41,180 bases of DNA from Bacteroidales bacterium (GTDB lineage: Bacteria; Bacteroidota; Bacteroidia; Bacteroidales; Bacteroidaceae): assembly GCA_030528885.1 (NCBI GenBank), contig JAUMXY010000026.1:223-41402 (forward strand), written 5' to 3'. The position numbers and the translations under genes were made by a program. The stretch's first letter is position 1; the number at the start of each line of letters is the position of its first letter. Positions 6,918 to 34,156 of this stretch are shown in pieces. A model generated the notes under the pieces. That model saw nothing but the letters and a program-made list of their open reading frames with translations, was not told the origin of the DNA and ran no database searches.

Positions 6918-7973
6918 ATGAAGATGAGACGTTTTTTGTTGGCTTGTGCGCTGGCGGTGCCGGTGCTGGGCTTGCTGGCTTGGGGGGATGGTGGCGCTGA
7001 TGCTGCTTGTTCTGCCGAGGGGGATGGTGTGCCTGGCGCTGAGGTGCGGGGCGGTTCGGCTGTGGCTGTGCTGTCTGCTGATGTGCCTAAGGTGTATATG
7101 ACGCGGGATATTTCGGCTGATGGGCTGGTGCGTGTGTTTGAGGCTCTTGGGGTGAGGCCTGAGGGCAGGGTGGCGGTGAAGATTAGCACGGGTGAGCCTG
7201 GCGGTAAGAATTTTTTGCAGCCTTCGCTGATTGGCAAGCTGGTGCAGCGGCTGGAGGGGACGATTGTGGAGTGCAATACGGCTTATGGGGGCAGGAGGAG
7301 CTCGACGGAGGAGCATCTGAAGGCGGCTCGTGAGCATGGTTTCTTTGATGTTGCTGAGGTGGATATCATGGATGCGGAGGGTGACTTGCGCCTGGCGGTG
7401 CGTGACTCGTCGCACATTAAGTATAATTTGGTGGGCTCTCACTTGGAGCGTTATGAGTTTATGGTGAATCTGGCTCATTTTAAGGGGCATGCGATGGGTG
7501 GCTTTGGCGGTGTGCTGAAGAATCAGTCGATTGGTGTGGCTTCGGCGAGTGGCAAGGCTTATATTCACAGTGCGGGGGTGACGACTGATGTGGGTAGGAT
7601 GTGGCGGCATACGCGTGACCAGATTGGTTTTCTGGAGTCGATGGCTGCTGCTGCTCAGTCGGTGCATGAGTATTTTGGCGGCGGGGAGCGCATTGTGTAT
7701 ATTAATGTGATGAATAACATGTCGGTTGACTGTGACTGTGATGCTCATCCTGCGGCTCCGCTGCTGAGGGATGTGGGCATTTTGGCGTCGTGCGACCCTG
7801 TGGCGCTTGATCAGGCTTGTCTTGACATTGTGTTTAGCATTGTGCCTGAGCCGGGCAATGATAATGGTCCGCTGCTGGAACGTATCAGGAGCCGTCATGG
7901 CACGCATATTGTGGAGTATGCGGAGGGGATTGGCTTGGGCAGCCGCAAGTATGAGCTGGTGGAGATGGAGTAG
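6918..7973 (+). CDS. DUF362 family exported protein
   Basis: A 351-residue protein. It begins with a basic, then hydrophobic segment (about residues 4-23), probably a signal peptide. From about residue 55 the sequence fits DUF362: VYMTRD near the start, VAVKISTGEPGG, the VECNTAYGG strand, VNLAHFKGHAMGGFGGVLKNQSIG and CDPVALDQACLD near the end. Other DUF362 proteins often carry a ferredoxin-like four-cysteine cluster; none is seen here, so electron transfer is not supported. The coding strand is very rich in G and T at third positions. The gene sits behind the 42-aa peptide and ends against a bidirectional terminator. The biochemical function of the family is unknown to me. Confidence 0.85.
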   Translation: MKMRRFLLACALAVPVLGLLAWGDGGADAACSAEGDGVPGAEVRGGSAVAVLSADVPKVYMTRDISADGLVRVFEALGVRPEGRVAVKISTGEPGGKNFLQPSLIGKLVQRLEGTIVECNTAYGGRRSSTEEHLKAAREHGFFDVAEVDIMDAEGDLRLAVRDSSHIKYNLVGSHLERYEFMVNLAHFKGHAMGGFGGVLKNQSIGVASASGKAYIHSAGVTTDVGRMWRHTRDQIGFLESMAAAAQSVHEYFGGGERIVYINVMNNMSVDCDCDAHPAAPLLRDVGILASCDPVALDQACLDIVFSIVPEPGNDNGPLLERIRSRHGTHIVEYAEGIGLGSRKYELVEME

Positions 7974-26832: not shown

Positions 26833-27372
26833 TTACTCAAAGAATTCCTTGAAAAGCTTATCGAAGAAGAGCCTGTAGGTGATGAGCGAGCCGATGCCCA
26901 TGCAGATGCCCATGAAGATGATGCCCTCGAGAATCTGCTTCCAGAACAGCAGCAGGATGATGGCGCCTGCGATGAGGAAGACGACTCTGCCCCCTTCCAG
27001 CACATCGTCCCATGCCGAGCTGAGCCATTCGCCCGTGCTGCGCTCCACGTCCACGTTCTGCTGCTCTTTCGGCGGCTCATTCGCTGGGGCAACGTGATTC
27101 ACATAGCGCATGCTCACATAGCCTTTCTCGCCTCGGTAGTTCACCTCGCCCCAGTCCATGCTGCTGCCTTGCACCACGCTGTATATCGTGATGCGCTCAT
27201 TGGCTTTCAGCGTCCCCGCCTTCGCATACCCCGTGCCAGGTCCCTTGCGTATGTTCAGGTTCGTCGTCACCCGATATTCAGCAGGGTAGTCCACTGCCAT
27301 CGCTTCCACGCCCATCCCCAGCAGGACGAGCAGCAGAAAGATTTTCAGGTTAGTTAACAGGCTGTGTTTCAT
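26833..27372 (-). CDS. SH3b-domain protein with C-terminal membrane helices
   Basis: A 179-residue protein. The signal sequence is about 8-26 (ending EAMA). An SH3b domain covers about 32-93 (TTNLNIRKGPGTGYAK, ITIYSVVQGSSMDWGEV, KGYVSMRYV). A polar linker leads to two hydrophobic segments, about 129-144 and 148-168, and a basic/aromatic C-terminus. Bacterial SH3b domains usually bind peptidoglycan stem peptides. The topology places SH3b in the periplasm. The start is 14 bp after the stop of the TIR-WD40 gene, so the two form a unit and may act together as wall sensor and signalling receptor, which is inference. Confidence 0.75.
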   Translation of the reverse strand: MKHSLLTNLKIFLLLVLLGMGVEAMAVDYPAEYRVTTNLNIRKGPGTGYAKAGTLKANERITIYSVVQGSSMDWGEVNYRGEKGYVSMRYVNHVAPANEPPKEQQNVDVERSTGEWLSSAWDDVLEGGRVVFLIAGAIILLLFWKQILEGIIFMGICMGIGSLITYRLFFDKLFKEFFE

Positions 27373-27386
27373 GTTGGTGGTATAGG

Positions 27387-29018
27387 TTAGAGGTCGGAGA
27401 TGTCCCAGATGCGGACAATATCGCCGGGAGATGCAGACACGATTCGGCTGCCGTCAGGGCTGAAGGAGGCAGACCAGACACCCTCTGTATGTCCTTCGAG
27501 CGTTCTGAGGCATTCGCCTGTAGCTGCGTCCCAGATGCGGACGGTCTTGTCGTAAGATGCAGACACGATTCGGCTGCCGTCAGGGCTGAAGGAGGCAGAG
27601 AGGACAATACTTGCATGCCCTTCGAGCGTTCTGATGCATTTGCCTGTAGCTGCGTTCCAGATGCGGACGGTATAGCCATATGCAGACACGATTCTCTTTC
27701 CGTCAGGGCTGAAGGAGGCAGACAAGACAGCAAATGCATGTCTTTCGAGCGTTCTGATGCATTCTCCTGTAGCTGCGTTCCAGATGCTGACGGTCTTGTC
27801 CTTGTCATCAGATGCTGAGACGATTCGGCTGCCGTCAGGGCTGAAGGAGGCAGACCAGACAGCACCTGTATGTCCATCGAGCGTTCTGATGCATTCGCCT
27901 GTAGCTGCGTCCCAGATGCGGACGGTTTCGTCCACAGATGCAGACACGATTCGGCGGCCGTCAGGGCTGAAGGAGGCAGAGTTGACATCCTCTGCATGCC
28001 CTTCGAGTGTTCTGATGCATTCTCCTGTAGCTGCGTTCCAGATGTGGACGGTCTTGTCCTGAGATGCTGAGACGATTCGGCTGCCGTCAGGGCTGAAGGA
28101 GGCAGAGCGGACACTATTTGTATGTCCTTCGAGTGTTCTGATGCATTCTCCTGTAGCTGCGTTCCAGATGCTGACGGTATTGTCGTAAGATGCTGACACG
28201 ATTCGGCTGCCGTCAGGGCTGAAGGAGGCAGAGATGACATAGCTTGTATGTCCTTCGAGTGTTCCGATGCCTATTTGAGGTGTTGAACACTGAGATATTC
28301 CCCAAAATATCAGGAAAATCATTGCTCCGATGCCCACAATCCATCCAATTGCCGATTTCTTCATCTTTCGGAATGGAGAAATGCACTTTGCAAACAGAGC
28401 GGCGGTCTGCTCTTTCTGCTTTTCCATTTCCAGTTCCGCCTTTCTTCTCTGTTCTGCTTCTGCCTTTCGCTGGGCTTCTTCTTCACGCCTCTTGCGCGCT
28501 TCCTCTGCCCGTTGTTGTGCTTCGGCTTCTGCCAGTGCCAGCTGTTCCTTCTCCTTATTAGATTTTTCTAATTTGGCTTCGTAGTTTGTCCATACTTTCA
28601 GCCAAGAACGCAAGTCTGCATAAAAGTGTTCCAGCTTGGTGGTGTCCAAAGCATCTATCTCCAGCTGGTTGGGGAACATGAACTTGAACCAGCGAGGCAG
28701 AGGGGTGTTGTCTAAGCTGATGAAGATAATGCGTTTCTTCTCTTCGAGAGCATAATTGACCTCTCTGATGGTCCAGTCGGTGCTGTGGTTGGTAATGTTG
28801 TTGTGCTCCTTTGAGCGCATAAAAAGGAATACTTCGCATTGGTCGATGGCTTTCATGATGACCTCGACAAACTGGGCGTCACTCTCGATGCCGTCACTAT
28901 CTATCCAGCACGGCTCGCCTGTTGCCTGCTCAATGTCCTTTCGGAGCGCATCCACACGCTCCTTGTCCACTCTTTTGTATGAGATGAAAATCCTTTCGTT
29001 TTTCTTTTCCATGTTCAT
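27387..29018 (-). CDS. TIR / coiled-coil / transmembrane / seven-blade WD40 protein
   Basis: 543 residues. A TIR domain spans about 9-140: it opens RIFISYKRVDKERV, and E86 in DWTIREVNYAL is at the place of the NADase glutamate of active TIRs. A charged coiled coil rich in Glu, Arg, Gln and Ala spans about 148-205. One transmembrane helix lies at about 223-240 (IGWIVGIGAMIFLIFWG), preceded by FRKMKKS, so the TIR end should be cytosolic and the propeller periplasmic. Seven WD40 blades of 41-44 residues begin at 253, 295, 337, 379, 423, 464 and 506. The blades are nearly identical except at a few positions. The domains suggest a sensor-effector protein, possibly for defence; this is not demonstrated. 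The start could also be two codons later. Confidence 0.85.
   Translation of the reverse strand: MNMEKKNERIFISYKRVDKERVDALRKDIEQATGEPCWIDSDGIESDAQFVEVIMKAIDQCEVFLFMRSKEHNNITNHSTDWTIREVNYALEEKKRIIFISLDNTPLPRWFKFMFPNQLEIDALDTTKLEHFYADLRSWLKVWTNYEAKLEKSNKEKEQLALAEAEAQQRAEEARKRREEEAQRKAEAEQRRKAELEMEKQKEQTAALFAKCISPFRKMKKSAIGWIVGIGAMIFLIFWGISQCSTPQIGIGTLEGHTSYVISASFSPDGSRIVSASYDNTVSIWNAATGECIRTLEGHTNSVRSASFSPDGSRIVSASQDKTVHIWNAATGECIRTLEGHAEDVNSASFSPDGRRIVSASVDETVRIWDAATGECIRTLDGHTGAVWSASFSPDGSRIVSASDDKDKTVSIWNAATGECIRTLERHAFAVLSASFSPDGKRIVSAYGYTVRIWNAATGKCIRTLEGHASIVLSASFSPDGSRIVSASYDKTVRIWDAATGECLRTLEGHTEGVWSASFSPDGSRIVSASPGDIVRIWDISDL
27390..28262 (-). repeat. Tandem 123-132-bp repeats encoding WD40 blades
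   Basis: Seven tandem units, mostly 126 bp, cover the C-terminal half of the TIR-WD40 gene. Long runs are the same between units at the DNA level. Such arrays change readily by unequal recombination or conversion. Confidence 0.9.
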
Positions 29019-29097
29019 AAAATTCTTTGTTCCATCTGTTTCTCCTATAAAGCGAACAGGGAAGGTGAATCTATCAGGCTAAAGTAAAAAATTATCC

Positions 29098-32758: not shown

Positions 32759-34156
32759 ATGAAACAATTCAAGAACTTGGCAACGATTATAATGGGATTA
32801 TGGTGTTGCGTGGCAGTGGATGCCCATGACTTTGAGGCGGATGGGGTTTATTATAATATTACATATGAAGGAGATTTGGAAGTGACATATAAGGGAGAAA
32901 GTTATGACTCTTATAATGAGTATATAGGAGAAGTGAATATTCCTGAGAAGGTGGAATTCGAATCGAAGGTTTATTCTGTGACAAGCATTGGAGATTATGC
33001 ATTCAGAGGCTGTTCCAATCTTACAAGTGTCACTATCTCCGGCTCTGTGACAACCATTGGTGCAGGGGCTTTCAACGGTTGTACCGGTCTTACCAGCGTC
33101 AAAATACCCAGTTCTGTTAAAGCAATCTTTAATAGTGCATTCTATGGCTGTACCGGTCTTACCAACGTCAAAATACCCGACTCCGTGACAACCATTAGAG
33201 AACATGTGTTCAGCGGTTGTTCCAATCTTACAAGTGTCACAATCCCCAGCTTTTGGACATGCATTGAGGGTGGGTTATTCAAAGATTGTACCAGTCTTAC
33301 CAGTGTCAAAATACCCGACTCCGTGACAACTATTGAAGCTCATGCATTCTCGGGCTGTTCCAGTCTTACAAGCATAACCATTCCCAATTCAGTAACAGAA
33401 ATCGGGCAGTATGCATTTAACCTGTGCTACCGTATCACCAGCGTTACTGTTCCCAATTCAGTGACCAATATTGAAGTGGGTGCATTCAGAAGATGCACCG
33501 GTCTTAAGAGTGTCACGATTCCCAATTCTGTGACAGCATTTGGGAAAGAAGCATTCGCTTATTGTACAGGTCTTATCAGCTTCACAATCCCCAACTCTGT
33601 GACAAGCATTGGAGATTATGCATTCAGCGGTTGTTCCAATCTTACAAGTGTCACAATTCCTAGCTCTGTAACAAGCATTGGAACCGATGCATTCAGAGAT
33701 TGTACCGGTCTTGCCAGTGTCACAATCCCCAGTTCTGTGACAAGTATTGAATATGGAACATTCATGGGTTGTACAGGTCTTACCAGCATCACAATCCCCG
33801 GCTCTGTGAAAAGTATTGACTATAAAGCATTCGAAGGTTGCAGCAGCCTGACGGATGTCACCATTGCTTCGTCGGAGCCCCCTGCTTTGAAAGAGAACTC
33901 CTTCAATAAGACCTCCTATATATTAACGACCATCTATGTACCCCAAGGCTCGTTGATAACATACCAGGTTGCAGATTTATGGGAGAAGTTTAGGAACATC
34001 AAAGAATTCGATCTTGTTGGAATTGAAGAGGTAGTTCCTGATTCTGAATCCCTCGATGACCCTGTCTTCAACCTGCAAGGTATACAGATGGAGGGAGCGG
34101 ACAATCTCCCCGGCGGCATCTACATTCAAGGCGGCAAGAAATTCATGGTAAAATAA
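32759..34156 (+). CDS. BspA-like leucine-rich repeat surface protein
   Basis: 465 residues. A signal peptide covers about 1-22 (ending AVDA). A short beta domain follows. From about residue 73 there are 13 consecutive 23-residue LRR_5 units (consensus NSVTSIGxxAFxGCTGLTSVTIP) to about 372. A cap (AFEGCSSLTDVTIASSEPP) and a linker lead to a C-terminal tail (FNLQGIQ, PGGIYIQGGKKFMVK) like those on the surface protein at 2600 and the GH27 enzyme. BspA-type proteins are surface adhesins that bind host matrix proteins or other bacteria. The gene is more AT-rich than most neighbours, and its last codons lie inside the second 57-bp repeat copy, which suggests a transferable cassette. Confidence 0.88.
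   Translation: MKQFKNLATIIMGLWCCVAVDAHDFEADGVYYNITYEGDLEVTYKGESYDSYNEYIGEVNIPEKVEFESKVYSVTSIGDYAFRGCSNLTSVTISGSVTTIGAGAFNGCTGLTSVKIPSSVKAIFNSAFYGCTGLTNVKIPDSVTTIREHVFSGCSNLTSVTIPSFWTCIEGGLFKDCTSLTSVKIPDSVTTIEAHAFSGCSSLTSITIPNSVTEIGQYAFNLCYRITSVTVPNSVTNIEVGAFRRCTGLKSVTIPNSVTAFGKEAFAYCTGLISFTIPNSVTSIGDYAFSGCSNLTSVTIPSSVTSIGTDAFRDCTGLASVTIPSSVTSIEYGTFMGCTGLTSITIPGSVKSIDYKAFEGCSSLTDVTIASSEPPALKENSFNKTSYILTTIYVPQGSLITYQVADLWEKFRNIKEFDLVGIEEVVPDSESLDDPVFNLQGIQMEGADNLPGGIYIQGGKKFMVK
32975..33875 (+). repeat. Tandem 69-bp repeats encoding LRR units
   Basis: Thirteen in-frame units of 69 bp. Several neighbouring units share long identical stretches, so copy number can change by slippage or recombination without frameshift. 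Confidence 0.9.

What the first reader, a model, noticed from the sequence alone, without database searches (positions are those of the whole stretch)
26833..29018. TIR / WD40 transmembrane receptor with a periplasmic SH3b partner: candidate undescribed sensing or defence system
One protein joins a cytosolic TIR domain (Glu 86 at the NADase position), a coiled coil, one membrane helix and a seven-bladed WD40 propeller. Basic residues just before the helix put the propeller in the periplasm. The next gene, 14 bp away, encodes an exported SH3b protein with two membrane helices. Known bacterial TIR defence proteins are mostly cytosolic; an outside-facing propeller tied to a probable cell-wall binder suggests a receptor that senses envelope damage, a phage component or a neighbour's surface and signals through NAD+ cleavage or TIR assembly. 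The domains are seen in sequence; the system is inference.
Basis: partly seen in the sequence, partly recalled or inferred. Interest (0 to 1): 0.8.

Follow-up and report, generated by a model that had tools for sequence, protein, structure and literature searches.

The report
Membrane TIR receptor with hypervariable propeller
A gut Bacteroidales bacterium carries a membrane protein with an immune-type TIR domain on one side and a seven-blade propeller on the other, whose near-identical blades differ most at the positions that usually touch a partner, as in fungal self/non-self receptors.

Summary
In detail: 27387-29018(-) is TIR, charged helix, one membrane helix and seven WD40 repeats; an exported SH3b protein follows after 14 bp. 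The blades are near-copies (median 85% DNA identity, 5 of 7 repeats) and vary most at repeat positions 5, 6, 7, 9, 25 and 27. Three of these are known top-face binding hotspots; all six match sites under diversifying selection in fungal HET-D/HET-E, and the same set is variable in nine other arrays from relatives. At least eight more TIR-TM-WD40 proteins exist in relatives, also STAND-type-TM-WD40 beside TIR genes, and TIR-WD40 without TM. At one syntenic site the TIR-TM part is 98-99% identical while repeat number is 11, 8 or 3 (assembly collapse possible). TIR resembles SARM1/tir-1 NADases (weak E) and Glu86 is invariant in 24 rows. Best reading: a membrane-anchored conflict receptor whose variable face binds a changing ligand and switches on the TIR. 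Outside-facing topology is predicted only; Cys content does not support it. The SH3b partner is mostly unsupported. Repetitive WD40s and TIR-linked WRAP propellers are in print, so this is a new variant of a known kind.

The parts
27387..29018 (-). TIR - charged helix - TM - 7x WD40 receptor-like protein (543 aa)
28695..28991 (-). TIR_2 domain (res 10-108); Glu86 codon at 28761-28763
28374..28586 (-). Glu/Arg/Ala-rich charged helix, probably coiled coil (about res 145-215)
   Evidence: read by eye from the translation printed; no coiled-coil predictor was run
28296..28352 (-). single membrane helix (res 223-241), basic residues before it
   Evidence: hydropathy script
27390..28259 (-). seven near-identical WD40 repeats (res 254-543), most variable at repeat positions 5,6,7,9,25,27 (also 30)
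26833..27372 (-). exported SH3b protein with C-terminal membrane segment(s) (179 aa); same strand, 14 bp downstream; partnership unproven

Best explanation
A membrane-anchored biological-conflict (immune-type) receptor. The seven-blade propeller is a diversified sensor: blades are kept near-identical by repeat amplification and recombination while top-face residues are driven to differ, giving a mosaic binding surface for a changing ligand (phage or competitor component, or a neighbour's surface; which one is unknown). Binding clusters or re-orients the protein through the membrane helix and the charged helix, bringing TIR domains together to cleave NAD+ and stop growth or kill the cell. Shown: domains, blade identity, position of the variable sites, recurrence of the pattern in relatives. 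Inferred: selection rather than drift, propeller outside, ligand type, NADase output, abortive outcome.
For: Variable columns 7, 9 and 25 coincide with the R1-2, R1 and D-1 top-face hotspots (definition, mapping mine). By offset 5 (best of 7 offsets in 10 of 10 arrays) the variable columns coincide with the HNWD high-dN/dS sites. The six columns chosen on the window are the more variable ones in nine other arrays (p 0.00005 to 0.011; G113 and G206 are near-identical, G101 and G200 orthologous). Window HV pN 0.60 against pS 0.158 elsewhere (all 7 repeats). TIR nearest solved relatives are SARM1/tir-1 NADases (E 0.0024-0.007); Glu86 invariant in 24 rows. Relatives combine TM + repetitive WD40 with TIR, or with a STAND-type NTPase beside TIR genes. 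The G113 and G206 copies lie within 1 kb of a D5_N/DUF5906 gene (that such genes belong to mobile elements is recalled). Repeat number 11/8/3 at one syntenic site with 98.4-99.3% N-terminal nt identity.
Against: No phenotype, ligand, assay or structural model. pN/pS is a count, not a likelihood test, and HV pN exceeds background pS in only 7 of 10 arrays. The propeller has 6 Cys, not expected for an oxidising periplasm, and TIR-WD40 relatives without TM exist. G113 and G206 arrays are 99.7% identical, so this array is not changing fast there. Arrays in short-read assemblies may be collapsed. No defence gene was recognised among the neighbours scanned with Pfam; PADLOC was run on the two genes only, and its hits to the TIR part are weak.
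Confidence: 0.5

Rival explanations
1. Young propeller without immune role: repeats amplified recently and tolerant surface positions drift neutrally; the gene is a transient product of propeller amplification and decay.
For: Amplification from single blades is widespread and disrupted young propellers are common (PMC9218822 discussion); TIR and WD40 parts fall in separate ORFs in G239 and G210. Three of 10 arrays show HV pN below background pS. In the window 94 of 200 differing pairs lie outside the six columns.
Against: In the window HV pN is 3.8 times background pS, and 11-17 of 21 repeat pairs differ by two or more bases at five of six HV codons. The same columns vary in other arrays and match those of fungal receptors.
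Confidence: 0.2
2. Membrane-tethered cytosolic sensor or scaffold: the hydrophobic segment does not place the propeller outside (or the TIR is an adapter), and it senses an intracellular ligand as APAF-1 or HET-E do.
For: 6 Cys in the propeller, one in each of six repeats; 10 of 22 WD40 proteins listed lack a preceding TM, seven of them TIR-WD40 and at least two fragments.
Against: Strong 19-residue hydrophobic segment with K/R 5 before, 0 after; same bias in 12 of 12 TM-WD40 proteins and in 30 of 34 other single-TM TIR proteins (4 ties, 0 reversed; some rows near-duplicates). A single TM must put TIR and propeller on opposite sides.
Confidence: 0.2
3. One reading: TIR-WD40 receptor with SH3b cell-wall partner.
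For: Same strand, 14 bp gap; in L068, home of a 63% TIR relative, an SH3b-TM gene follows a TIR-TM gene by about 120 bp in the same order; G221's SH3b gene lies 0.85 kb from a TIR gene with a HAD-like gene between.
Against: The other 13 of 14 SH3b loci show no TIR in the stretch examined (shortest flank 1.0 kb); G113 and G206 gave no SH3b match; the 44-46% homologues (G221, G225, G079) are 521-553 aa with several membrane segments, at other sites.
Confidence: 0.1

Closest known systems
WRAP propellers (Nostoc 2ymu and relatives; STAND-WRAP coupled to TIR-STAND)
   Same: Nearest solved WD40 (2ymu, E 4e-177); recently amplified near-identical blades; TIR link; suggested innate-immunity role (PMC9218822: passages, discussion section)
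   Different: No STAND NTPase here; TIR is on the same chain; a membrane helix separates TIR from propeller
Fungal HNWD NLRs HET-D/HET-E
   Same: Near-identical WD40 repeats with hypervariable sites at matching positions (PMC12222747, passages)
   Different: HET + NACHT NLR, fungal; here TIR + TM, no NTPase; similarity of pattern, common ancestry not tested
Highly-repetitive prokaryotic WD40 proteins (Hu 2017)
   Same: Conserved repeats with diverse hotspot sites already noted (PMC5587647, section 11)
   Different: The terms TIR, immun and Bacteroidetes do not occur in that text
Thoeris ThsB and other bacterial TIR NADases
   Same: TIR_2 match, Glu at the catalytic position; weak ThsB-type hits
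   Different: ThsB-type hits below cut-off; no ThsA-like partner among ORFs scanned; membrane anchor and propeller
DUF4062 TIR-like NADases (Swarozyc; TEP1 with NACHT and WD40; PMC13174449 preprint, passages)
   Same: TIR-like NADase, in TEP1 on a chain with WD40; window TIR has a DUF4062 hit at E 0.0033
   Different: That hit is below the Pfam cut-off; no NACHT; no membrane helix mentioned in that text (terms searched)
DGR-diversified antigen sensors (PMC10907252)
   Same: Hypervariable sensor joined to TIR/STAND effectors (passages)
   Different: CLec sensor and reverse transcriptase; here no template copy in the genome and RT hits only on other contigs

Membership tests
TIR NADase domain | TIR fold match | tested here: met
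   TIR_2 E 1.3e-13, above cut-off
TIR NADase domain | catalytic Glu in place | tested here: met
   E86 invariant in 24 rows; DW..E aligned to SARM1/tir-1; that this Glu is catalytic there is recalled
TIR NADase domain | NAD+ hydrolysis | not testable with these tools
   needs assay
HNWD / high-internal-conservation NLR | near-identical WD40 repeats with hypervariable sites | tested here: met
HNWD / high-internal-conservation NLR | NACHT/STAND NTPase between effector and sensor | tested here: not met
   no NTPase hit in res 1-230; residues 109-253 read as charged helix and TM
WRAP | internal blade identity above 60% | tested here: met
   median 0.75 aa, 5 of 7 repeats
WRAP | fused STAND ATPase, gene coupled to TIR-STAND | tested here: not met
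   no STAND gene among the ORFs scanned
Thoeris | adjacent ThsA effector | tested here: not met
   adjacent genes match cobW and SH3_3, next one Melibiase_2
Toll-like receptor (analogy only) | sensor outside, TIR inside, one TM | tested here: inconclusive
   K/R bias supports, Cys content does not
DGR target | template repeat and DGR reverse transcriptase | tested here: not met
   only the 7 repeats themselves match in the own genome; two RVT_1 hits on other contigs, one over the cut-off, type not determined; genome 89% complete, so absence is not strict

The most novel reading that the evidence does not exclude
A bacterial analogue of Toll-like receptors with a germline-hypervariable ligand face: the propeller sits in the periplasm, its mosaic top face recognises foreign or non-self envelope or phage proteins, and recognition crosses the inner membrane to switch on a TIR NADase. 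The gut Bacteroidales would then use the TM plus repetitive-WD40 module as an exchangeable outside sensor on TIR and STAND effectors.
Probability: 0.3. Interest if true: 0.85.

Novelty: new variant of a known kind. Interest (0 to 1): 0.55.

Why it matters
A membrane-spanning TIR receptor with a diversifying propeller would be an outside-in bacterial immune receptor, and the match of its variable sites with fungal incompatibility receptors makes a testable case that unrelated lineages diversify the same propeller face for non-self recognition. The six variable positions give a direct handle for binding and allele-swap experiments.

Tried and rejected
SH3b as conserved partner: rejected as a general rule. 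An SH3b domain that I saw by eye at the C-terminus of L071 was not confirmed by Pfam at E 0.001 and is not used. My first guess that the genes before STAND-type proteins are plain SIR2 genes was corrected: all six scanned have a C-terminal TIR_2 match (one, in L203, below the cut-off) and 2 of 6 also have SIR2_2. DGR origin of the variation: no template copy. Plasmid or phage carriage: no TIR match in plasmids or phages at E 1e-5, none in viral contigs with a single-sequence query (1 of 8 scans used). Cys content as a topology test gave a mixed answer. A 1119-aa nSTAND1 protein of G206 (L120 12275-15634) showed no WD40 repeats by my pattern and is not counted. Arrays left out for too few usable rows: that one and G257. 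Paper searches for a bacterial TIR-WD40-transmembrane receptor gave no description of one in the rows listed or the passages read; one search listed 15 of 45 and 12 of 22, most papers were seen only as listings, and the library lacks most subscription journals.

Full report
What is there. The window (contig C5 of a 2.62 Mb, 73-contig assembly) belongs to a Bacteroidales genome. Its family also contains G124, whose contig C46 has the same length (149,100) as JAEEZX010000031.1, titled a Bacteroidaceae MAG. ORF 27387-29018(-) encodes 543 aa: TIR_2 at 10-108, an Ala/Glu/Arg/Lys-rich helix at about 145-215 (by eye), a membrane helix at 223-241 and seven WD40 repeats from 254 to the end. ORF 26833-27372(-) encodes an exported SH3b protein, 14 bp downstream.

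The unreported feature. The seven repeats are near-copies at the DNA level. With the five repeats that have no indel, median identity is 0.85 nt and 0.75 aa; framework columns average 0.88 aa identity and the six variable columns 0.13. The best blade in the other arrays compared (G206) reaches 0.78 nt, against 0.91 within the window; in amino acids the two maxima are equal, 0.83. With all seven repeats aligned, 106 of 200 differing repeat pairs fall in six of 36 columns (5, 6, 7, 9, 25, 27); the most that any six columns could hold is 108, with column 30 (14 of 21 pairs) in place of column 5 (12 of 21). pN in the six is 0.60 against pS 0.158 in the rest, and at five of the six codons 11-17 of 21 pairs differ by two or more bases. 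These columns were picked from the window, so I tested them in nine other arrays from relatives: the set is more variable than random sets of six columns in all nine (p 0.00005 to 0.011). The nine are not all independent: G113 and G206 are near-identical and G101 and G200 are orthologues. Repeats with indels were left out (window 5 of 7, G200 7 of 8, G252 10 of 12, G239 5 of 6 used). HV pN exceeds background pS in 7 of 10 arrays including the window, and not in G252, L078 and G239.

What the positions mean. Wu et al. 2012 (PMC3419727, passages) define R1 (start of strand a), R1-2 and D-1 (before the tetrad Asp) as the top-face hotspots; here these are positions 9, 7 and 25 (my mapping). Ament-Velasquez et al. 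2025 (PMC12222747, passages) list positions 10, 11, 12, 14, 30, 32 and 39 as the high dN/dS sites of HET-D/HET-E repeats. Sliding this set along our columns, offset 5 scores best of seven possible offsets in 10 of 10 arrays; positions 10, 11, 12, 14, 30 and 32 then fall on our six columns, and 39 on column 34, little variable in the window. Hu et al. 2017 had already noted hotspot diversity in highly repetitive WD40s, about half of them bacterial (PMC5587647, section 11), and Pereira and Lupas relate WRAP propellers to TIR/STAND proteins and innate immunity (PMC9218822, passages and discussion). The pattern is known in kind; this protein is a new form of it.

The TIR. A profile of six TIR domains finds nine solved sequences at E <= 0.01, all SARM1/tir-1 (E 0.0024-0.007, so weak), with our DWT.RE aligned to their DW..KE. 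Glu86 is invariant in 24 rows. PADLOC and NCBIfam give only weak Thoeris-like and SAVED-TIR hits to the TIR part. A scan of genome contigs returned 51 loci. I printed 38 of them, of which 37 showed the TIR ORF (the other 13 were not read for layout). C-termini are very diverse by eye (Sel1, FGE-sulfatase, Fib_succ-type, WG, LRR, vWA, DUF805-like); one (L078) is TIR-FGE-WD40 without TM, and none of the 37 is TIR-TM-WD40.

Relatives with the same layout. In 399 family genomes, 17 (own included) match the propeller at E <= 1e-30. TIR-TM-WD40 proteins other than the window's are in G113, G206, G101, G200, G257, G144 (cut by a contig end), G360 and L083 (Candidatus Limimorpha caballi), eight in all; in G239 the parts lie in two ORFs. 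By eye their TIR is another subtype. A TM-preceded WD40 on a STAND-type protein occurs in G206, G272, G248 and G124; nSTAND1 was confirmed by Pfam for the G206 one, the others by eye, and each follows a gene with a TIR_2 match (below cut-off in G124). TIR-WD40 without TM: G252, G124 (three), G033, L078 and L118. The G113 and G206 TIR-WD40 genes lie within 1 kb of a D5_N/DUF5906 gene.

Array dynamics. At one site in genus g20, with shared flanking genes by eye, G101, G200 and G257 have N-terminal parts 98.4-99.3% identical in DNA but 11, 8 and 3 repeats. Short-read assemblies fail on such arrays, as the Podospora paper warns, and G144's array is broken by contig ends, so repeat counts, the window's seven included, need long reads. 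G113 and G206 show the reverse: N-terminal part 92.9%, array 99.7% identical, which fits recent exchange of the array.

Topology. K+R in the 15 residues before the TM exceed those after it in 12 of 12 TM-WD40 proteins including the window (5 against 0), and in 30 of 34 other single-TM TIR proteins (4 ties, none reversed; some rows are near-duplicates). This predicts TIR inside and propeller outside. Against it, the window propeller keeps 6 Cys (2.05%); among the 12 TM-WD40 proteins Cys is 0-0.2% in six and 1.4-3.7% in the other six including the window, so the test is mixed.

The SH3b gene. Homologues of the window SH3b were found in 12 of 201 family genomes and 4 of 45 genus genomes, own included in both. 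Of 14 non-window loci from these searches, one (G221) has TIR genes in the stretch examined (shortest flank 1.0 kb). The 44-46% homologues (G221, G225, G079) are 521-553 aa with more membrane segments, so the window's is a short form. In the 51 TIR loci, SH3b appears once at E < 0.01, in L068, directly after a TIR-TM gene of the same subfamily and in the same order as in the window. I read this as an occasional association, not a defining partner.

Site. In four genus relatives examined (G225, G014, G081, G210), parA follows cobW with 0, 1, 4 and 2-3 ORFs between. In the window 19.2 kb lie between them, with fimbrillin-like, carbohydrate-active and rmuC genes, the SH3b gene and, next to cobW, the TIR-WD40 gene. 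rmuC lies on the other side of cobW in three of these relatives, so the window was also rearranged. The pair sits at a variable chromosomal site.

Verdict. A membrane-anchored TIR receptor with a diversifying propeller is the best-supported reading (0.5); ligand, sidedness and output are untested. It is a new variant of a known kind.

Noticed in passing
window 9055-30396: The cobW-parA interval is a variable site in the genus: 0 to 4 ORFs in four relatives examined, 19.2 kb in the window.
   Followed up: partly
L120 3704-6619, L122 5999-8911: TIR-TM-WD40 genes of two species: arrays 99.7% identical in DNA, N-terminal parts 92.9%; suggests exchange of the array.
   Followed up: partly
L193 13236-13679; L048 3038-3325; L083 9196-9480; L118 6129-6416: RyR-domain genes recur near TIR/WD40 clusters (Pfam for the first two; the others by eye).
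   Followed up: partly
L200 4553-6770; L123 about 7022-7848: TIR and WD40 parts in separate ORFs in G239 and G210, apparently disrupted copies; described only.
   Followed up: no
window 29015-29035 (-): A mini-ORF (MEQRIL, stop) overlaps the TIR start codon and by eye resembles the usual start of its TIR relatives.
   Followed up: no
window 27350-28240 (-): A second frame stays open through the repeat array (296 aa); probably a by-product of the repeats.
   Followed up: no
L068 415-5810: Cluster of three TIR genes with an SH3b-TM gene in a Paludibacteraceae MAG from sheep colon; home of the closest TIR relative.
   Followed up: partly
window 32759-34156 (+): BspA-type LRR_5 protein, E 4e-101.
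   Followed up: no
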